Source of the DNA: Bacteroides faecis MAJ27
GTDB taxonomy: Bacteria; Bacteroidota; Bacteroidia; Bacteroidales; Bacteroidaceae
DNA length: 64,000 nt
Direction of reading: 5' to 3'
Assembly (NCBI RefSeq): GCF_900106755.1
Contig: NZ_FNNN01000004.1
Span: 186,001 to 250,000 of the forward strand
Shown piece by piece: positions 2,478-44,780 of this stretch. Under the pieces are notes generated by a model that saw only the letters and a list, made by a program, of their open reading frames with translations, was not told where the DNA came from and did not search any database. A program made the translations under genes and the position numbers. Positions within the stretch are counted from its first letter, which is position 1. The number at the start of each line of letters is the position of its first letter.

Positions 2478-3662
2478 ATGAAAAAGAGTATCCTTATCGC
2501 TGCCTTAGGCTTGTTCAGCCTGAGCGCAATGGCACAAGACGCAAAACCCGAAGAGGGCTTCGTTTTCACAACAGTGAAAGAAAATCCGATTACCTCCATC
2601 AAAAACCAGAACCGTTCGAGCACCTGCTGGAGCTTCTCTGCTTTGGGATTTCTGGAATCAGAACTACTTCGTTTAGGTAAAGGCGAATATGACCTTTCGG
2701 AAATGTTTGTTGTACACAAAACAATGGAAGACCGTGGAGCAAACTACGTACGCTATCATGGCGACAGTTCTTTCTCTCCCGGTGGAAGTTTCTATGACAT
2801 TATTTACTGTATGAAGAACTACGGTCTTGTTCCGCAGGAAGCAATGCCGGGTATCATGTACGGTGATTCACTGCCGGTACACAACGAACTGGATGCCGTA
2901 GCAGAAGGTTACATCAACGCTATCGCCAAAGGTAAACTCACTAAGCTGACTCCGGTATGGAAAAAAGGTCTTAGCGCTATCTACGATACTTATCTGGGAG
3001 CATGCCCGGAAAACTTCACTTACAACGGTAAGGAATATACTCCGAAAACTTTCGCTGAATCACTCGGACTGAAAGCTGAAGACTATGTATCACTGACTTC
3101 TTACACACATCATCCTTTCTATTCTCAATTCGCCATCGAAATTCAGGATAACTGGCGTAACGGTCTGTCATACAACCTTCCGATCGATGAGTTCATGGCT
3201 GTAATGGACAATGCCGTTAAAAAAGGATATACATTCGCATGGGGCAGTGACGTCAGCGAGCAAGGTTTCACCCGTGACGGTATCGCTGTAATGCCGGACG
3301 CTGCCAAAGGTGCAGAACTGACAGGTTCGGATATGGCCCGCTGGACAGGTATGACAGCTGCCGACAAACGCAAAGAACTGACTTCCAGACCACTTCCGGA
3401 AATGGAAATCACTCAGGAAATGCGCCAGACAGCTTTCGACAACTGGGAAACTACAGACGACCACGGAATGGTTATCTACGGTATCGCTAAAGACCAGAAT
3501 GGTAAAGAATACTTCATGGTAAAGAACTCCTGGGGCAAATCAGGTAAATATGACGGAATCTGGTATGCTTCCAAAGCATTCGTCGCTTACAAGACTATGA
3601 ATATCCTGGTACACAAGGATGCACTTCCCAAAGAAATAGCAAAGAAACTGGGTATCAAATAA
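2478..3662 (+). CDS. Secreted C1 (papain-fold, PepC/bleomycin hydrolase-like) cysteine peptidase
   Basis: 394 residues. A signal peptide ends near residue 19 (SAMAQ). The active-site block KNQNRSSTCWSFSALGF gives the oxyanion Gln at about 44 and the nucleophile Cys50. The catalytic His is in DDHGMVIYG (about residue 328) and the Asn in VKNSWG (about 348). Cys, His and Asn in this order with an NSWG motif define papain-like C1 peptidases; the spacing and the long insert fit the C1B aminopeptidase C/bleomycin hydrolase branch. The signal peptide is unlike the cytoplasmic PepC enzymes and suggests the periplasm or cell surface. It is monocistronic, with its own -7 box and a strong terminator after the stop. 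Likely role: trimming peptides for uptake. Confidence 0.88.
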   Translation: MKKSILIAALGLFSLSAMAQDAKPEEGFVFTTVKENPITSIKNQNRSSTCWSFSALGFLESELLRLGKGEYDLSEMFVVHKTMEDRGANYVRYHGDSSFSPGGSFYDIIYCMKNYGLVPQEAMPGIMYGDSLPVHNELDAVAEGYINAIAKGKLTKLTPVWKKGLSAIYDTYLGACPENFTYNGKEYTPKTFAESLGLKAEDYVSLTSYTHHPFYSQFAIEIQDNWRNGLSYNLPIDEFMAVMDNAVKKGYTFAWGSDVSEQGFTRDGIAVMPDAAKGAELTGSDMARWTGMTAADKRKELTSRPLPEMEITQEMRQTAFDNWETTDDHGMVIYGIAKDQNGKEYFMVKNSWGKSGKYDGIWYASKAFVAYKTMNILVHKDALPKEIAKKLGIK

Positions 3663-3684
3663 AGAGATGACTCTTATATAAGAA

Positions 3685-3725
3685 CAAAAGCCCCGGAAGC
3701 GATTTCTGCTCCCGGGGCTTTTGTC
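3685..3725. terminator. Bidirectional terminator between the C1 peptidase and response-regulator genes
   Basis: A long hairpin with arms at 3685-3697 and 3713-3725 (core AGCCCCGG / CCGGGGCT). It is flanked by A's on the left and T's on the right, so it can end the plus-strand peptidase message and the minus-strand regulator message that converge here. Confidence 0.85.
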
Positions 3726-3772
3726 TTATCATCATCTTCCGCCTGCAACGATTTATCAAAGACAGCAGCGCT

Positions 3773-4501
3773 TTAAAAGAGACTCAACTTACCGATATAT
3801 TCCGTAAACTTCTCCTTATAATTATCCCCGACAGGAATATACGTCGTCTTATCAAAGATAATGCGGAGACGGGAAACTTCTGTAATCTTGCGAAGATTGA
3901 CAATATAAGAACGGTGTACCCGCATGAAATACGCGGGAAGCCGCTCCTCCATCTTCTGAAGGCTGGCAAGAGTAATGACCGGTTTATCCTCACCTTCTAT
4001 GAAAATACGTACATATTCACTCATACTCTCAATGTACCGTATATTTTTCACATCGATACGTACCACCCTATAATCACTCTTTACAAACAGAGAATCTCCT
4101 TTTATCTGCGAACTGTTCCCCAGTTCTCCCTGCTGCTCCAGCAACCGGTATTCAAATTGTTTCCGTGCCTTATCCGCCGCTTTCAGTAAATCCTGGAACT
4201 CAAACGGTTTCAAGAGGTAATCGACAGCATCCAGTTTGAAACCGTCAACCGCATATTCAGAATAAGCAGTCGTGAAGATAACCAACGGATGGCTGATAAG
4301 CGAACGGATAAAATCCAGTCCGTTCAAATCGGGCATATTGATATCCACAAGGATCAGGTCTATATCCTCATCAGCCAGTACCTTCATCGCCTCAAAAGCA
4401 TCCTGGCAAGGCTTGACTAAAGACAGAAAAGGAACACGGGATATATAATCCGTCAGTTGCTTCAATGCCAAAGGTTCATCATCAATCGCTATACATTTCA
4501 T
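3773..4501 (-). CDS. LytTR-family response regulator
   Basis: 242 residues. The N-terminal receiver domain (about 1-120) has the acidic pair D7/D8, the phospho-acceptor D53 in LVDINMPD, the Thr in FTTAYSEYAVDGF and the Lys in YLLKPF. The C-terminal LytTR DNA-binding domain (about 135-242) shows the typical KNIRYIESMSEYVRIF and FMRVHRSYIVNL. It is the partner of the sensor kinase just upstream: the kinase stop and this ATG share one base (TAATG at 4501), so they are translated together. LytTR regulators usually act on nearby cell-surface or peptide-linked genes. The target here is unknown. Confidence 0.92.
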   Translation of the reverse strand: MKCIAIDDEPLALKQLTDYISRVPFLSLVKPCQDAFEAMKVLADEDIDLILVDINMPDLNGLDFIRSLISHPLVIFTTAYSEYAVDGFKLDAVDYLLKPFEFQDLLKAADKARKQFEYRLLEQQGELGNSSQIKGDSLFVKSDYRVVRIDVKNIRYIESMSEYVRIFIEGEDKPVITLASLQKMEERLPAYFMRVHRSYIVNLRKITEVSRLRIIFDKTTYIPVGDNYKEKFTEYIGKLSLF

Positions 4502-5715
4502 TATAATAAAGGTACAATAAGTAAAACATCAAATTTATTATCTTCCTCCGTAATGGAAAGGGTATAATCATTACCAAACAACAGCCTTAAGCGTTTACGA
4601 ACGTTCTCCAAACCGATACCATGATGCTGCTCATCAGACGAACCGCCTGTACTGTTGGTACATCTGAAAGAGAGCCTGTTTCCGTCTTCCAGTTGCATCA
4701 CTACATGAACGAACGATTCTTTCCGGTAGCTGATTCCATGCTTGAAAGCGTTTTCCACAAAAGAGACAAAGAGCAAAGGCGGTATCTGTACCTCGGGTAC
4801 TTCAAGAGGAAAATTCTTTTCAATGGATACTCTGTCAGGGTAACGCAAACTCATTAACGTGACATAATTCTCCAGAAACTGGATTTCACGCGACAGCAGA
4901 ATGGTTTTGTTGCTGGCTTCGTAAAGCACGTAACGCATTAACTTGGAAAGTTCCACAATCGTACTTTTCGCTTTTCCCGTATCGATATCCACCAGTGCAT
5001 GAATATTATTAAGCGTATTCATGAAGAAATGCGGGTTTATCTGATATTTCAGGTATTGCAGTTCGGACTGCAGATGTTGGTGTTCCAGTTCTTTCAGCAT
5101 CTCTTCGTCCCGGAAGGACTTGAAAAACAACTTGACTGCAATATTAAATCCGACCATCAGAAAAGCTACCACAAAATGAATAAGATAGCGGATAGTGAAA
5201 GGAGGAAAAGGATAAGGAGCCGGCTTAGGAAAGCCACCTGGTCGTTGGGGCTTTTCCACATCAGGCTCCATCAGTCGAAGCTCATCCCAATGGATAGACT
5301 CTTCTTTACGAGCTCTCTCTCTCATTTCTATAAGTTGATTTCTCCGGTTCTCTTTACTATCGCCATTCTTATCATGAATCTTCTCATGCCTGAACTTCCC
5401 CGGAAACCGTTCCATAGAAGGAGCAGGAGCGATCAGGCACGAAATAGCAATCAGAAAAACCACAGAAATAATATAGGGCCAATATCTTTTTCTGAAAAGA
5501 AAATACGGAACCAATACGTAATTGTTCAACAGAAACAGCACGAAAAAAGGGAGGATAGTCAACCAGGAGTCATGGATCACCGCACGACTTTCCTCTCTTT
5601 CGAGCCCACCATTAACGGCAAAGTATCCGCCGATCAATGGGAGAAGAAAAATAACAGTCCAGATAGCCCCATAAATGCTCTGTTCCAGCAATTGTTGTTT
5701 ACGCAGTCTTTTCAT
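4501..5715 (-). CDS. LytS/YehU-type sensor histidine kinase
   Basis: 404 residues. Three N-terminal hydrophobic segments (about 17-35, 52-72, 78-98) are followed by a highly charged, then Pro-rich loop (about 100-172) and a fourth membrane segment (about 174-196). The His_kinase domain has the phospho-acceptor H229 in the family motif YQINPHFFMNTLN. The ATPase part has the N box FVENAFKHG and the Gly-rich GIGLENVRKRL. These kinases pair with LytTR regulators, as the overlapping downstream gene confirms. The charged Pro-rich loop between membrane segments 3 and 4 is probably the sensor region. A promoter with ideal spacing lies just upstream. Confidence 0.92.
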   Translation of the reverse strand: MKRLRKQQLLEQSIYGAIWTVIFLLPLIGGYFAVNGGLEREESRAVIHDSWLTILPFFVLFLLNNYVLVPYFLFRKRYWPYIISVVFLIAISCLIAPAPSMERFPGKFRHEKIHDKNGDSKENRRNQLIEMRERARKEESIHWDELRLMEPDVEKPQRPGGFPKPAPYPFPPFTIRYLIHFVVAFLMVGFNIAVKLFFKSFRDEEMLKELEHQHLQSELQYLKYQINPHFFMNTLNNIHALVDIDTGKAKSTIVELSKLMRYVLYEASNKTILLSREIQFLENYVTLMSLRYPDRVSIEKNFPLEVPEVQIPPLLFVSFVENAFKHGISYRKESFVHVVMQLEDGNRLSFRCTNSTGGSSDEQHHGIGLENVRKRLRLLFGNDYTLSITEEDNKFDVLLIVPLL

Positions 5716-34780: not shown

Positions 34781-35902
34781 TCATTCTGCAATACAAATAC
34801 TTACACGGTTCTCTTCAGGAGTGGAATAAGGTTGTACAGTATCCCCCTTAAAATCTACGATAATCCGATCAGCTGTAATACCTTTAGCTTTCAATGCTTC
34901 AGCGACATTGTTAGCCCGAGCTTCAGACAATCTTCTGTTGATTCCAGGATTACCTGTATTGACATCCGCATAACCTGTCACATTCATTGTTGCAGTAGGG
35001 TACTTTTTCATATATTCAATCAAAGAAGCAATCTTAGCTTGCTGGTCATCTTGAATACGTGCAGAATTTAAAGCGAAAAAGATATTCTGTTTCAAAGCTT
35101 TCCTGATAACTGTTTCTTTTTTCGGTTGCTCCACTACAGGAGCAGATTTAACTTCTTCCGCCACTGGTATTGTAACCGGTGGTTCCACTTCATGGTAAAC
35201 AGGAGCTGTCGTTCTATGGCTTTTACCCAACGTAAAAGTAAGACCTGCCAAGGCATTGAATTGCCAGTCAGCATTACGTCCCTTCTTTGAGTTGAACTTG
35301 TCAGATAGCATATTGGCATTCAGTTCCAGATTAATGGCTACATGGTCGTTCAAACGAAAGTTTGCTCCCACACCACCACGTCCTGCAACATATACTTTCT
35401 TACCTGTCCAAAGATGATGCAGTTTATATCCGCCCGCGTTTAATGCTACAGCTTCATCATTACTAAAAGCGCCATTCAAGCCCACTCCCAGAAAGAGATA
35501 AGCATTGAAAATACGTTCGGAATTAAAGCCACGACACAAATCACTCAGATCGAGCATAGCATCTACACTGCCTTGCAAATACTTATATTTATAAGTAGTA
35601 GTCGGATTCACCCAGCCTCCCTTAGCTTGCCAGCCGCTAACCTCAGCCCGGAGCCCGAACAAAGGAGTAAACTTATAACCAAAAGCCATTGCTACAGACG
35701 GAGAAAGTAAATCTCCAAAAGCAGATTCACCCACAGTATAAGCACCGCCACCCTGAACAGATAAAAACCAATGTGGATTGAACACCGTCTTCCCTTCCTC
35801 TATAGCACGAGGTTGGCCGCTTATATTACCCGACTGTTGAGCAAAAACGACAGTAGAGCACATCAAAAATGCAACTAAAAGAATGTGATAGTTATTCTTC
35901 AT
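34781..35902 (-). CDS. OmpA-family outer-membrane protein
   Basis: 373 residues from ATG 35902 (MKNNYHILLVAFLMCSTVVFAQ, a clear signal peptide); the extension to 35923 is ignored. An N-terminal eight-strand type barrel (about 40-215) is followed by a Pro/Glu/Val-rich linker (VYHEVEPPVTIPVAEEVKSAPVVEQPKKE) and a C-terminal OmpA domain (from about 255: KQNIFFALNSARIQDDQQAKIASLIEYM... VTGYADVNTGNPGINRRLSEARANNVAEAL). The OmpA domain binds peptidoglycan. It follows the surface lipoprotein on the same strand (125 bases), so both are likely under the invertible promoter. Similar lipoprotein-OmpA pairs are known at phase-variable surface-layer loci of B. thetaiotaomicron. Confidence 0.9.
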   Translation of the reverse strand: MKNNYHILLVAFLMCSTVVFAQQSGNISGQPRAIEEGKTVFNPHWFLSVQGGGAYTVGESAFGDLLSPSVAMAFGYKFTPLFGLRAEVSGWQAKGGWVNPTTTYKYKYLQGSVDAMLDLSDLCRGFNSERIFNAYLFLGVGLNGAFSNDEAVALNAGGYKLHHLWTGKKVYVAGRGGVGANFRLNDHVAINLELNANMLSDKFNSKKGRNADWQFNALAGLTFTLGKSHRTTAPVYHEVEPPVTIPVAEEVKSAPVVEQPKKETVIRKALKQNIFFALNSARIQDDQQAKIASLIEYMKKYPTATMNVTGYADVNTGNPGINRRLSEARANNVAEALKAKGITADRIIVDFKGDTVQPYSTPEENRVSICIAE

Positions 35903-36027: not shown

Positions 36028-38946
36028 TTATTGAGCGTCTTTTGCCAATTTAACAGGGATATTACATGTTACGACTGACAAGTCTTTGAATGTAACCTTC
36101 GCTGTCACAGTAAGATTGTAGTCTTTCACCAAAGTAGAACCTTGATTTTTCCAAGTTACAACACCTGTTACATCATTTACTTCCAGTTTAGAATCCTTAG
36201 ACATATTAGAAGTCAGTTCAGTCCAAGCAGCATTCTCTACGAAAGCATATTCTACGCTGACAATATCATTAGTCAACTTATAAGTATCTGTAGCCTTAGA
36301 GCTTAATACCAAAGTTTTTGACGTATTGTTGTAAGAATAGATATTGCTACCTTCATTGTCTTTAACAACAACCTGCGGCATCGTTGCACCTGTGTTCTCA
36401 CCAATACCATTACCATAAATACTTATGCCATTAGTAGTACCGGCAACAAACGGATTAACGAATACAATGTTATAGTTGAAGTTACATGTTTCATCGTTCA
36501 CCAAAGTAACCTTGTAAGTCATGTTCTTAACATCGTCACGCTTAGTCATCGCTTCAGTCAACTTCACAGTTTCATCCGTATTGAATGAAGTCAAAGGATC
36601 AGGAGTAACTCCAGTAATACCACTAGCCCACTGGAACTGGAGAGCGTTCACATTATTCACCTTATTATAATATTCGAAGATATTCTCTCCTTCCATATTA
36701 GCGAAGTGCTCGCTTACTACAGAAGACATTTCCCAGTGACCGGAAGTATTCTGTCCCTTTATCACGATACAGTCATTATAAGTTTTGCCATCAGCAAGAG
36801 ACTTATAAGTTTCGTTGTAATACAGAGGATTATAAACATAAGGAACACATTCTTCCTTCACATAGAATATTTGCTCAAGTTTAATATCGCCATGTGAATT
36901 ATCATTAGAAGGAATGATAATCTTCACTGAATACTTAGCACCCTTACCGTCAATATCCTTATAAGTGTTCTGAGTCTTAATCAGGTTGTTGATACCAACT
37001 TTAATAGCTGAAGTCTTAGTAGCATCATCATTCAACTTAATGTTAAGCAGAAGACCCTTATTAGAGATTACAACATCAGTTTGCTGAGAAACTTCTTCAC
37101 TGATGATTGTTTCTTCCTGACCACTCTTATTTGTTACAGTAACCAATACATTATATTTATGATCCTGACCACCATAATAATTCCAGAATGTAGTAGAAGT
37201 CAACTTAGCAGTACCATAAATCTTATTGTTGATAGCCTGATAATCCATGTTCACATTATCAAGAGGATAAGCATTGGTAAATGCATTATCATCGCTTTCT
37301 AACTTATGATAATCAGCAGCCTTAGGATCAGACATATTGATAGTACCATAATCAGGTTTAGTACCCGGAGTAGGATCTTCTTCTGTAATAGACAGTTTAA
37401 TGTAAGAAGAAGCAACCAGTTTCTTCGCACCATTATTGCTAGTCAGGAAAGCATCTACTCTCACTACCGGAGTACGTCCGATAGCCGGAGTTCCGTTAAC
37501 GACTTCCGGATTAACTTTGATCACACCATTAGCAAGAGTGTTTTCTCCCTCTTTTGTAATAAACCACTGTTGATTAGTCTTTTCATCATCATTAGCCAGA
37601 TATTTTTCAGGTATAGAGAATTCATAGCTCATACCTTTGAAACCCAATTCAGCCAACCAGTCAGTCTTGATATCAGAATACAATCCTACGTAATCTTTAA
37701 GATTAATAGTGCCTGTATACTTAAATGCGGCATTTGCCTCAGCATCCAGTGCAACAAACTGTTTGATGAAAGCGTCTGATTCACCTTTAGCAATAGATTG
37801 TGTACGTTTGTAGAATGTTACAGCAGCCTCACCCTGCACCGTTTTTACACTATCGGCAAGTACGAGGTCTATTTCTTCAGAAGTCACATGAACATAATCA
37901 GAAGTCAAAGGTGTCTGACCATACCATGCCTGCAAAGCAGCGATGTTATATTCTTGATTTTCAACCAATGCATTCGGATTGACAGTAGCATCGATGACAG
38001 CAACACCATCACTTACAGTTTTATTGTCTACGTTCAAAAGAACAGTTCTGTCACCGGCAGCACGAGTCGTAATTTTACGGTCAATGAAACCATATACAGT
38101 TTTTGCATCTACATTTGCATCTTCCGGATTCAAACGATAGTTCATTGCAACAACGTTAGATTTTCCCCAGTCAGACTGTTCTTTGAAAGCGTTGTTAGCA
38201 GTATTATACTTAGTTTCATCCAAATAGTTCTTAATATGATAGAAAGGATTACTAGTAGTAGCATATGGAACATCCTGGCTTACAACATCAGGTATAAATG
38301 CTATAGAAGACAAAGCGATACCAGAAACCAAGTCAACAGAGATAGACTGACCATCTTTTCCCTGAACACCGGTAAGAGTTAACACATTACCATTAAGTAC
38401 TGCGCTAATACCTCCTTCAGAGGCAACTTTCCAATTGATGTCTGTTGATTCAACAAATTTGTTATCTTTCCATATATCAAAGCATCCGGTTTCCTGATTA
38501 GGTACATAGTACAGCCCATTTTCACCCGGCTTGCCATCTTCACCCGGTTTGCCATCAGCTCCCGGCTTACCATCAGCACCTGCTTGTCCATCTACACCGA
38601 CAGCTTTGTATTGAGTCTTCACGCCATCTTTATACCAATAGCCACCACTTTCGCCGATTGTCCAGACAGCAGCATCTTTACCAGCAGCACCGTCCTTACC
38701 GTTTGTCAACTCATAGCTTTTACCATCGCTGAGCGTTACAGTAATTCCATTTTCTCCCTTAGTAACGTTCGTGATGACAGCTCCACCATTTACTTTAGCC
38801 TGCAATTCATCCAGTGACACTTTTACAGCATCAATCTGTTGTTGCAGATTGTCAATGTCATCATCGTAGTCTTTACAGCCTACATAGGTGACAGTAGAAA
38901 GTGCCAACGCCCCGAAGAACATCACTCTTACAAATTTTCTTTTCAT
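36028..38946 (-). CDS. Large surface lipoprotein with collagen-like repeats (S-layer-like family)
   Basis: 972 residues. Lipoprotein signal MKRKFVRVMFFGALALSTVTYVGC (lipidation at Cys24), then KDYDDDIDNL: the acidic residues after the Cys are the usual Bacteroides surface-export signal. A short coiled coil (about 30-55, DNLQQQIDAVKVSLDELQAKV) precedes Gly-rich repeats (GKDGAAGKDA; about 115-145 GADGKPG-type triplets) in the PL29/DUF4988-like N-terminal region. The remaining 800 residues are Ig-like and beta-rich. B. thetaiotaomicron has a family of phase-variable, surface-layer-like lipoproteins with this build. Expression here should depend on the invertible segment just upstream. Confidence 0.82.
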   Translation of the reverse strand: MKRKFVRVMFFGALALSTVTYVGCKDYDDDIDNLQQQIDAVKVSLDELQAKVNGGAVITNVTKGENGITVTLSDGKSYELTNGKDGAAGKDAAVWTIGESGGYWYKDGVKTQYKAVGVDGQAGADGKPGADGKPGEDGKPGENGLYYVPNQETGCFDIWKDNKFVESTDINWKVASEGGISAVLNGNVLTLTGVQGKDGQSISVDLVSGIALSSIAFIPDVVSQDVPYATTSNPFYHIKNYLDETKYNTANNAFKEQSDWGKSNVVAMNYRLNPEDANVDAKTVYGFIDRKITTRAAGDRTVLLNVDNKTVSDGVAVIDATVNPNALVENQEYNIAALQAWYGQTPLTSDYVHVTSEEIDLVLADSVKTVQGEAAVTFYKRTQSIAKGESDAFIKQFVALDAEANAAFKYTGTINLKDYVGLYSDIKTDWLAELGFKGMSYEFSIPEKYLANDDEKTNQQWFITKEGENTLANGVIKVNPEVVNGTPAIGRTPVVRVDAFLTSNNGAKKLVASSYIKLSITEEDPTPGTKPDYGTINMSDPKAADYHKLESDDNAFTNAYPLDNVNMDYQAINNKIYGTAKLTSTTFWNYYGGQDHKYNVLVTVTNKSGQEETIISEEVSQQTDVVISNKGLLLNIKLNDDATKTSAIKVGINNLIKTQNTYKDIDGKGAKYSVKIIIPSNDNSHGDIKLEQIFYVKEECVPYVYNPLYYNETYKSLADGKTYNDCIVIKGQNTSGHWEMSSVVSEHFANMEGENIFEYYNKVNNVNALQFQWASGITGVTPDPLTSFNTDETVKLTEAMTKRDDVKNMTYKVTLVNDETCNFNYNIVFVNPFVAGTTNGISIYGNGIGENTGATMPQVVVKDNEGSNIYSYNNTSKTLVLSSKATDTYKLTNDIVSVEYAFVENAAWTELTSNMSKDSKLEVNDVTGVVTWKNQGSTLVKDYNLTVTAKVTFKDLSVVTCNIPVKLAKDAQ

Positions 38947-39008
38947 AACTACTTAAAAATTACATTAATAATATATTATTAAACACTAAGTTTCAATAAT
39001 AAACGCCC

Positions 39009-39027
39009 GTTACTTTATAGGTAACAG
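39009..39027 (+). repeat. Left inverted repeat of the invertible segment
   Basis: GTTACTTTATAGGTAACAG, perfect inverse of 39291-39309. Its core GTTAC-N7-GTAAC is itself a palindrome with a 7-base centre, the usual layout of a tyrosine-recombinase crossover site. Confidence 0.9.
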
Positions 39028-39290
39028 GAAAACCTTTGTCCAGGCTTTTAGAGGGCCTTCTATACGAAAAACTAAATGATTTGGCTACGAAACATATTTA
39101 CCCCTGCTTCTGAAATGCGGCAGAGGGGAGGGAAATCTTTTATTCTGATGAAAGGATTACAAAAGTCCAATACTAAGAAATCCGCTGTTTTATCGTGTAA
39201 TTTCTCTTTTTTTAGTAGTTTACTAGAAATAATATCTTTTTTGTTTGCATGTTTTCCAAAATATATCCATCTTTGCAACGCTATTCGGCT
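39028..39290. other. Invertible 263-bp promoter segment (DNA phase switch)
   Basis: Lies between perfect 19-bp inverted repeats, with the lipoprotein gene (minus strand) to the left and a tyrosine recombinase to the right. The best Bacteroides promoter inside points to the right (plus strand), away from the lipoprotein. No minus-strand TAnnTTTG was seen in the segment or the 62 bases between it and the lipoprotein. Inversion would place the promoter about 80 bases upstream of the lipoprotein, reading into it. This sequence therefore shows the OFF orientation. Confidence 0.85.
39244..39275 (+). promoter_or_regulatory. Promoter carried by the invertible segment
   Basis: TTTG (39244-39247), a 20-base spacer and CATCTTTG (39268-39275; one mismatch to TAnnTTTG). 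The spacing is ideal. In this orientation transcription would start near 39282 and run across the right repeat into the 3' end of the recombinase, antisense to it. Confidence 0.65.
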
Positions 39291-39309
39291 CTGTTACCTA
39301 TAAAGTAAC
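39291..39309 (-). repeat. Right inverted repeat of the invertible segment
   Basis: CTGTTACCTATAAAGTAAC, exact inverse of 39009-39027. It ends 10 bases before the stop codon of the recombinase. Confidence 0.9.
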
Positions 39310-39319
39310 ATCCTTATTT

Positions 39320-40258
39320 TCAGACGATTGCCCATCCAGTTGATCGCCGAACAAAATCCACGATCTTTTTATTAGCCTCATCAATTTTCTTATTATGAAA
39401 AGGCTTCAGATAGGTTTCTGTCACAGTGATAGATGAATGTCCCATTGCTTCGGAAATAATTCCCGGATGGATTTCACAATGATACGCAGTCGTAGCCCAC
39501 GTATGGCGAGCCGTGTATGAGCTCAATTTTCCTTCCATCCCCATCAATTTCCCCAATAGCATCAGTTTTTGGTTGAAGCTACGCAAAGCCAGTTGGTATT
39601 CACGGTAAGCCTCTTCTGTTCCTTCATCACTACTCAGAATTGGAAATAAATAAGGAGAACTCTCATTACGATCCATATATCGTCGCAACAACACCATTGC
39701 TTCCGGTGCAAGAGTGACAGACAACGAACGTCCCGTTTTGCGGCGACGATAAGTGATTACATTGTCTCGCAAATCACTTTTCCGCAGATAAGCCAGATCT
39801 ACAAAAGGCAGACCACGAAGCAGGAACATCAGAATAAACAAATTCTGCGCATGCCTTAAATCCGGGGTCACTTCTGGCAATTCCGGCAGACGTCCGAAAA
39901 CCTTGCGCATTTCTTCATCCTCCAACGCTCGCTTTCTATCAGCACGTGTACCTGTATAAACAGAACGAAACAAATGAGGGATATACTCCGCTTTCCGAAG
40001 ATCCACGGCTCGATTGTAAACTGCACGAAAAACCCGAAGATAGGTGGAAACAGTATTCCAACTACACCCCCGACTCCGAAGATTTACTTCAAAGGCTTTC
40101 AACCATTCGGGAGTCACCCGACGAAAATCAAGATGTTTACTTCCATGAAAGGTGATCACGGTATTCAACGTACTTCGATATACATGGGCAGTCCCAAAAT
40201 TTCCCTCTGCCCGTAGCTCATCGGCTACTTTTCTAAAAAATAAAATTAAATTCCCCAT
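39320..40258 (-). CDS. Tyrosine site-specific recombinase (promoter invertase)
   Basis: 312 residues from ATG 40258 (MGNLILFFRKVADELR); the longer frame overlaps the promoter. An N-terminal SAM-like core-binding domain (about 1-115) precedes the catalytic domain with Arg in LFILMFLLRGLPFVDLAYL, Lys in RRRKTGRSLSV, the second box SSYTARHTWAT (Tyr in place of the first His, as in many Bacteroides enzymes), His in EAMGHSS and the nucleophile Tyr in TETYLKPF. No phage or conjugation genes are nearby. The position next to the inverted repeats makes it the probable invertase of the promoter segment. Confidence 0.9.
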   Translation of the reverse strand: MGNLILFFRKVADELRAEGNFGTAHVYRSTLNTVITFHGSKHLDFRRVTPEWLKAFEVNLRSRGCSWNTVSTYLRVFRAVYNRAVDLRKAEYIPHLFRSVYTGTRADRKRALEDEEMRKVFGRLPELPEVTPDLRHAQNLFILMFLLRGLPFVDLAYLRKSDLRDNVITYRRRKTGRSLSVTLAPEAMVLLRRYMDRNESSPYLFPILSSDEGTEEAYREYQLALRSFNQKLMLLGKLMGMEGKLSSYTARHTWATTAYHCEIHPGIISEAMGHSSITVTETYLKPFHNKKIDEANKKIVDFVRRSTGWAIV

Positions 40259-44416: not shown

Positions 44417-44551
44417 TCAATCTTTTCATCTTTCACATTCATCAGATTATAGTATACTAATAGACTGGCTGTAATTCATTAATAGACAAATTCCGTTGCA
44501 TCAGGAGCAAACTTCATTTGTTCTAATGATAAACTTATCTTTTATCTAAAG

Positions 44552-44647
44552 CAAACTCAAAACGCAAGCTTTGTTTTTATAAATGCAAGCTTCATTTCTA
44601 TAAACGCAAGTTTCGTTTATAAAAACAAAGCTTGCGTTTTGAGTTTG
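44552..44647. repeat. 32-bp perfect inverted repeat with tandem 21-bp units (element 3)
   Basis: Arms at 44552-44583 and 44616-44647 are exact inverse copies of 32 bases around a 32-base spacer. Three tandem 21-base units (44563-44583, 44584-44604, 44605-44625; pattern (C/T)GCAAG(C/T)TT..TTT..ATAAA) run across the left arm and spacer. Weaker inverted matches extend further out (GCAAACTTC near 44507 with GAAGTTTGC near 44662). It lies between two convergent genes. Confidence 0.9.
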
Positions 44648-44780
44648 GATCTAATACAAAGGAAGTTTGCCATTAGAGGAAAAGAAGTTAATCTCTAATG
44701 AAACAGAACTTATCTATTAATAGATGACGGAAAGAGTAATAGGTTATTAGATAAGGAAACAGAGACCAAGATGAAAAAAG

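What the first reader, a model, noticed from the sequence alone, without database searches (positions are those of the whole stretch)
39009..39309. Invertible promoter caught in the OFF orientation upstream of a collagen-like surface lipoprotein
Perfect 19-bp inverted repeats (39009-39027 and 39291-39309) enclose 263 bp with one well-spaced Bacteroides promoter (39244-39275) that points away from the lipoprotein gene. A tyrosine recombinase ends 10 bp from the right repeat. Inversion would aim the promoter at the lipoprotein and OmpA genes. Phase-variable surface-layer-like lipoproteins of B. thetaiotaomicron are controlled this way; the orientation and site details are read from this sequence.
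Basis: partly seen in the sequence, partly recalled or inferred. Interest (0 to 1): 0.85.

Follow-up and report, generated by a model that had tools for sequence, protein, structure and literature searches.

The report
Invertible OFF promoter of surface lipoprotein
In this gut Bacteroides genome a short promoter segment lies between two matching inverted repeats and points away from a large lipoprotein gene, so the gene is likely silent until a neighbouring recombinase, as predicted, flips the segment; it is one of 14 such switches in the genome and belongs to a kind of on/off surface control already known in Bacteroides.

Summary
Perfect 19-bp inverted repeats (39009-39027, 39291-39309) enclose a segment with one Bacteroides-type promoter (39244-39275) that points away from the lipoprotein and OmpA-like genes and towards the 3' end of a tyrosine recombinase gene. 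It belongs to a switch family: this genome (B. thetaiotaomicron or a close relative) holds 14 such segments, all OFF. Of 83 switches fetched here and from relatives, 82 have the recombinase in view, always pointing at the switch; 79 are OFF and 3 ON. For those 3, an orthologous locus elsewhere carries the segment inverted between colinear flanks, so members of the family do invert. The two free bases in the centre of each repeat agree in 114 of 116 pairs although eleven versions occur, as strand exchange would demand. Correction: the lipoprotein shows no sequence relationship to the BT1927-like S-layer lipoprotein of the same genome; one switch family serves two unrelated lipoprotein/barrel pairs. 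New member of a known kind. Boldest open reading: the OFF promoter drives antisense RNA into the recombinase gene and so keeps the switch OFF. Inversion of this very copy was not seen and needs reads.

The parts
39009..39027 (+). left arm of the switch; contains GTTAC-7 bp-GTAAC (likely two recombinase half-sites round a 7-bp exchange region, central bases TA at 39016-39017)
39291..39309 (-). right arm, perfect inverted copy of the left arm; same central bases
39028..39290 (.). 263-nt predicted invertible segment, in OFF orientation
   Evidence: orthologous segments of the family seen in both orientations
39244..39275 (+). Bacteroides-type promoter (TTTG - 20 nt - CATCTTTG), pointing away from the lipoprotein
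   Evidence: both TTTG boxes invariant in 35 of 35 aligned segments
39101..39128 (.). conserved dyad CCCCTGC-N12-GCAGAGGGG inside the segment; function unknown, possible insulator or protein site
39320..40258 (-). tyrosine recombinase (312 aa), likely the invertase of this switch; 3' end 10 nt from the right arm
38947..39008 (-). leader between left arm and lipoprotein start codon; nearly identical in three paralogous cassettes (C17a, C17b, C41b)
   Evidence: printed flanks
36028..38946 (-). lipoprotein of 972 aa, predicted surface exposed: DUF4988 N-terminus, collagen-like stretch at 38509-38598, predicted beta-rich multi-domain chain
34781..35902 (-). OmpA-like outer-membrane protein (373 aa from the ATG), probable partner in the same operon

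Best explanation
A 263-nt promoter segment between two perfect 19-bp inverted repeats points away from a lipoprotein-OmpA gene pair in this assembly, and the tyrosine recombinase encoded 10 nt beyond the right repeat likely inverts it, which would switch the pair ON. Shown: the repeats, the promoter-like element, its direction, the gene order, 13 further switches of the same design in the genome, and inverted orthologous segments at three loci of relatives. Inferred: that this copy inverts, that the neighbouring recombinase does it (rather than a sibling acting in trans), that the promoter is active, and that the lipoprotein is surface exposed. Likely working: each arm holds two GTTAC/GTAAC half-sites round a 7-bp exchange region; strand exchange between the arms reverses the segment; when ON the transcript would run through the left arm into the lipoprotein and OmpA-like genes. 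Most cells are probably OFF, with a rare ON subpopulation that presents a different surface, by analogy with BT1927 (about 1 in 1,000 cells ON in rich medium, PMC12548429).
For: Perfect arms beyond chance. 14 pairs of the same site in this genome, 243-267 bp between the 17-base sites; 12 fit the strict pattern and 2 have one changed end base; each lies beside a recombinase homologue (the one at C17b is split in two frames). In 158 genomes of the genus (149 plus 9 new ones), 27 hold strict pairs; the reversed-pattern control is 0 in both calls. Orthologous loci differ by inversion of exactly this segment with colinear flanks: L091/L076 (segment 97% identical, flanks 93-95%), L082/L062 (short flanks only, 219 and 278 bp), L075 and L061/L105. 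The two free bases of the arm core agree in 74 of 75 pairs (2000 shuffles: mean 22.5, maximum 36) and in 41 of 42 read from listings, one pair being in both sets: 114 of 116. K174, R251, H274 and Y283 are invariant in 14 own-genome recombinases, the window's included. Published: mutating one repeat of the BT1927 switch locks it (PMC12548429).
Against: No reads were available, so both orientations of this copy were not seen. The syntenic switch of B. xylanisolvens (L118) is OFF too. The promoter box CATCTTTG departs by one base from TANNTTTG. The recombinase has proline (P151) where most tyrosine recombinases have the first catalytic arginine, although paralogues share this. Some switches sit beside split or interrupted recombinases (C17b, L062, L097, L116), so either they are locked or a sibling enzyme acts in trans. 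Single sites at 3 mismatches are not much above the control (25 and 33 against 19 and 19); only the pairing at about 260 bp is. Core matches in orthologues are partly inherited, so the shuffle test overstates independence.
Confidence: 0.93

Rival explanations
1. The segment once inverted but this copy is now locked OFF.
For: All 14 switches of the genome are OFF; one split recombinase (C17b) and two arm-core mismatches elsewhere (L062, L199) suggest that switches of this family can decay.
Against: Arms are still 19 of 19 identical with matching core TA/TA and the recombinase frame is open with its conserved residues.
Confidence: 0.05
2. The switch inverts, but through a sibling or master recombinase acting in trans (as recalled for Mpi of B. 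fragilis) rather than through the neighbouring enzyme.
For: Fourteen switches share near-identical half-sites, and C17b has matching arm cores although its own recombinase is split.
Against: 82 of 83 switches fetched keep a recombinase homologue (7 of them partial) within 85 bp of an arm; the one without (L204) ends 137 bp beyond an arm at a contig edge. This argues for local action.
Confidence: 0.18
3. The repeats are binding sites of a regulator or terminator hairpins and the DNA does not invert.
For: Each arm is itself an imperfect palindrome, and the left arm was flagged as terminator-like on the minus strand.
Against: Inverted orthologous segments with arms as boundaries; co-varying cores between arms about 260 bp apart.
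Confidence: 0.01

Closest known systems
BT1927 phase-variable S-layer locus of B. thetaiotaomicron (Taketani 2015 and Porter 2020, not held; known here through passages and the introduction of PMC12548429 and passages of PMC12578637)
   Same: Same switch family: the switch in front of the BT1927-like gene of this genome (C41c, L024) has the same site, length, promoter and recombinase arrangement; lipoprotein followed by an outer-membrane barrel.
   Different: The lipoprotein and its partner show no sequence relationship to the BT1927-like pair; S-layer formation by the window's protein is untested.
Invertible promoters of Bacteroides capsule (UpxY) operons
   Same: Same half-sites, similar segment size, promoter position and convergent recombinase in own-genome switches such as C52cps (NusG-like first gene).
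   Different: Recombinases of a second clade (39-44% identical to the window's); core CT in the six own-genome copies; the CCCCTGC-N12-GCAGAGGGG dyad in 0 of 35 such switches against 23 of 40 lipoprotein-type ones by pattern.
Inverton groups of hCom2 strains (PMC11892184, passages and section 7)
   Same: B. thetaiotaomicron invertons with a Bacteroides promoter motif and tyrosine invertases oriented so that the inverton promoter cannot drive them.
   Different: That paper calls the invertases 'non-regulatable'; 'antisense' does not occur in its text, and the parts read do not speak of matching arm cores.
E. coli fim switch
   Same: Promoter on an invertible element flanked by short repeats, two site-specific recombinases (PMC8777976, passages). 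Orientational control of fimE is recalled; one search showed only a reference title.
   Different: Other repeat sequence (PMC8777976, passage); relatedness of the recombinases was not tested.

Membership tests
Bacteroides recombinase-flipped invertible promoter (inverton) | Perfect inverted repeats round a promoter next to a surface-protein gene | tested here: met
   promoter activity and surface exposure are predictions
Bacteroides recombinase-flipped invertible promoter (inverton) | Both orientations occur | tested here: inconclusive
   met for three orthologous loci of relatives; not seen for this copy, no reads
Bacteroides recombinase-flipped invertible promoter (inverton) | Open tyrosine recombinase gene beside the switch | tested here: met
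   first catalytic arginine position is P151
BT1927-type phase-variable S-layer locus | Switch of the same sequence family as the BT1927-like gene's | tested here: met
   alignment of 35 segments including C41c; BT1927 primers of PMC12548429 fit the C41c lipoprotein gene with 2 mismatches of 53
BT1927-type phase-variable S-layer locus | Lipoprotein homologous to BT1927 | tested here: not met
   against the BT1927-like C41c protein: BLASTP E 0.22 over 27 residues; profile comparison probability 2.6%; partner barrels unrelated by BLASTP
BT1927-type phase-variable S-layer locus | Forms a surface lattice, resists phage or complement | not testable with these tools
   needs locked-ON cells and microscopy

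The most novel reading that the evidence does not exclude
The OFF state maintains itself: in OFF the promoter fires straight into the 3' end of the recombinase gene and the antisense transcription lowers recombinase, while in ON that brake is lifted and the enzyme soon flips the segment back. This would explain why 79 of 82 assembled switches are OFF. Alongside it, the central two bases of each arm act as a pairing key that keeps many near-identical switches, including tandem neighbours, from recombining with one another.
Probability: 0.27. Interest if true: 0.68.

Novelty: new member of a known kind. Interest (0 to 1): 0.4.

Why it matters
Phase-variable lipoproteins are reported to let a few gut Bacteroides cells survive phage attack in advance (PMC12548429, introduction). 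This locus adds a member, shows that one switch family stands before unrelated lipoproteins, and gives two testable rules for the family: arm cores match, and the OFF promoter faces the recombinase gene, which could explain the rarity of ON cells.

Tried and rejected
Rejected: a recombinase-binding site in front of the recombinase gene (autoregulation). By eye the window shows a degenerate copy, but best matches upstream of 71 recombinases score no better than mononucleotide shuffles. Rejected after checking: that the lipoprotein is an allele of BT1927; the BT1927 primers fall in the C41c gene, not in C41b as I first took it, and the proteins show no relationship. Weakened on checking: a 45-base stretch of a B. 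thetaiotaomicron primer (BT1222-3OUT, PMC12548429) matches this genome exactly, but it also matches G058 exactly (2 of 158 genus genomes), so it does not settle the species.

Inconclusive: the dyad at 39101-39128 as terminator (conserved; 8 of 34 consensus pairs of the alignment change on both sides, 4 of them in the dyad; no T-run directly behind it). Different cores in tandem cassettes: C17a/b, C34a/b, C41b/c in this genome, and pairs in G020, G077 and G143 (6 of 6, the G143 pair resembling C41b/c); too few for a test, none was run. The OFF transcript meets a weak arm hairpin and CTTATTTT before the recombinase gene, which could end it early; this speaks against the antisense reading. A recombinase search in genome contigs found no relative. 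The structure of the C41c lipoprotein, folded without an alignment, came out at mean pLDDT 45 and says nothing. The B. thetaiotaomicron dRNA-seq papers were read only in passages: the word recombinase occurs in neither text, and no antisense RNA to an invertase was seen.

Not in print as far as searched: for antisense or overlap-region work on these switches; only the held open-licence library was searched, and Taketani 2015 and Porter 2020 are not in it.

Full report
Observation. The arms are 19 of 19 complementary with 263 nt between and the only such motif in the window at up to 3 mismatches; none of 40 simulated windows held a perfect inverted repeat of 16 bp within 400 bp, while the real window holds one other place, at 44552-44650. 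The promoter 39244-39275 reads to the right, away from the lipoprotein.

Genome. The window is G000:C52:186001-250000 of a 5.96-Mb genome in 76 contigs. BT1927 primers (PMC12548429) fit one of its genes with 2 mismatches of 53, and a 45-base stretch of a B. thetaiotaomicron primer beside BT1222 matches exactly, but that stretch also matches G058, another genome of the genus. So the genome is B. thetaiotaomicron or a close relative. The BT1826 forward primer has no exact match in 158 of 158 genus genomes, this one included, and the BT1826 pair fits nothing near the window's lipoprotein. That VPI-5482 carries BT1826 near groEL is recalled.

Site family in the genome. Single sites like GTTACCTATAAAGTAAC at up to 3 mismatches are hardly above the control (25 and 33 against 19 and 19), but 14 form inverted pairs of one design, 12 of them by the strict pattern. 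Seven stand before lipoproteins that match the window's (which also lists two weak matches elsewhere), one before a different, BT1927-like lipoprotein (C41c), three before operons whose first genes look like UpxY/NusG (tested for L028 only; the other two by eye), one before a YjbH-like gene, one before a DUF3575 gene, and one (C38) without an ORF of 90 aa or more in the adjoining 700 bp. All 14 have the promoter facing the recombinase side, i.e. OFF. C29 keeps a recombinase and a single arm.

Relatives. The paired pattern with free core bases is found in 25 of 149 genus genomes and in 10 of 17 handles, 8 of them already counted: 27 of 158; the reversed-pattern control found none. One search listed 63 pairs of relatives before its list was cut; I fetched 60. 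With the 14 own copies and two named loci (L118, L119; the variant arms of L119 were set by hand) this makes 76 (recounted). The recombinase points at the switch in 76 of 76, 13-85 bp away; six of these matches are partial. The promoter faces it in 73 and faces the other way in 3. Seven further switches gave six convergent and OFF, one of them with a partial recombinase, and one (L204, at a contig edge) with no recombinase in view. These copies are related to one another, so the counts are not independent.

Inversion. For each of the three ON cases an orthologous locus is OFF. BLASTN shows flanks in the same order and the segment reversed: L091 against L076 (flanks 9-2307 and 2559-4701 forward, 304 bp at 97% reversed), L082 against L062 (flanks of 219 and 278 bp, segment 94%), L075 and L061 against L105 (segment 80-81%). 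L062 is of the lipoprotein type. Its recombinase is interrupted (only residues 247-304 beside the switch, a different integrase upstream) and its two arm cores differ, so it may be locked ON.

Arm cores. The search left the two central bases of each arm free, yet they agree in 74 of 75 pairs (shuffles: mean 22.5, maximum 36) and in 41 of 42 read from listings. One pair, L118 = G110:C1:1747757, is in both sets, so the sum is 114 of 116. Ten cores occur in the first set and an eleventh. Two modules of G081 are 99% identical over 1299 bp but differ in the core, in both arms alike; C41b and C41c are 94% identical over 506 bp and differ in both core bases. Matching of the exchange region is what tyrosine recombinases generally need (established knowledge); the pattern suggests that the arms still recombine. 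Inheritance in orthologues accounts for part of the agreement.

Recombinase. Domains are SAM-like and catalytic; the four solved structures found by sequence are XerC-, XerA- and XerD-like. K174, Y248, R251, H274 and Y283 are invariant among 14 own-genome recombinases including the window's (the split C17b gene was left out). The usual first arginine aligns with P151. IntDOT is recalled to lack it too.

Lipoprotein. DUF4988 N-terminus, collagen-like stretch of ten triplets, 1630 homologues at E up to 1e-10 among the 7993 candidates scored; of the 120 listed the best full-length one is 77% identical, and a shorter one is 94% identical over 76% of the query. The model (mean pLDDT 83.7, pTM 0.47) is a chain of beta-rich domains after one long N-terminal helix; the 50 Foldseek rows shown are titin, cadherins and other multi-domain proteins at TM-scores of at most 0.13 over the query, so only the general build is informative. 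In the paralogous cassettes the matches are confined to N-terminal stretches of 51 to 321 residues. B. xylanisolvens XB1A has a cassette at the same place, in the same order; its lipoprotein matched over the first 102 residues only. In B. faecichinchillae (L126) the flanking matches are 351 bp apart where the window has 5.9 kb: the cassette is present or absent as a unit. The window's OmpA-like protein is 59% identical to the partner of C41b and shows no relationship to that of C41c.

Mechanism and its uncertain steps. Shown: anatomy, family, inversion at related loci, core matching. Inferred: inversion here, local action of the recombinase, promoter activity, surface exposure, benefit. PMC12548429 (passages and introduction) reports that BT1927 is ON in about 1 in 1,000 cells in rich medium and that a locked-ON strain was nearly completely resistant to at least four phages, though only after colonies had been aged.

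Antisense reading. Because the recombinase gene converges on the switch in every case seen, an OFF promoter points into its 3' end. PMC11892184 (passages and section 7) notes that invertase genes lie so and concludes that they are unlikely to be regulated by the inverton promoter. Antisense interference would be a way round that conclusion and would make OFF self-sustaining. No expression data were available to me, and a weak arm hairpin followed by CTTATTTT lies in between.

Verdict. A real, well-formed invertible promoter, new as a locus, known in kind.

Noticed in passing
L024:7053-12971 (C41b and C41c): Adjacent switches 94% identical over 506 bp stand before unrelated lipoproteins and differ in both arm-core bases; tandem cassettes had different cores in 6 of 6 cases seen (one resembling another).
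   Followed up: partly
L021:12809-13755 (C17b): Recombinase gene split in two frames although its switch keeps matching arms.
   Followed up: no
L062:591-2197 and L097:585-2215: Recombinase gene of a lipoprotein switch interrupted at about residue 247, with a different integrase gene upstream; likely insertion of a mobile element. L062 is ON with unequal arm cores, L097 is OFF with equal cores.
   Followed up: partly
L030:5352-7398 (C38): Switch with an open recombinase gene but no operon in view; the neighbouring gene is a NAD kinase reading towards it.
   Followed up: no
L032:4318-5283 (C29): Recombinase of the family with one arm only and no lipoprotein of the family beside it: likely a remnant cassette.
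   Followed up: no
window 39320-40258: Proline 151 stands where tyrosine recombinases usually have the first catalytic arginine; own-genome paralogues of the capsule clade have serine or proline there.
   Followed up: partly
window 39101-39128: Conserved dyad CCCCTGC-N12-GCAGAGGGG with variable loop, found by pattern in 23 of 40 lipoprotein-type switches and 0 of 35 capsule-type ones.
   Followed up: partly
window 44450-44749: Long imperfect palindrome (148-nt arms, 72% complementary, 4-nt loop) in an intergenic stretch; perhaps a hairpin element.
   Followed up: no
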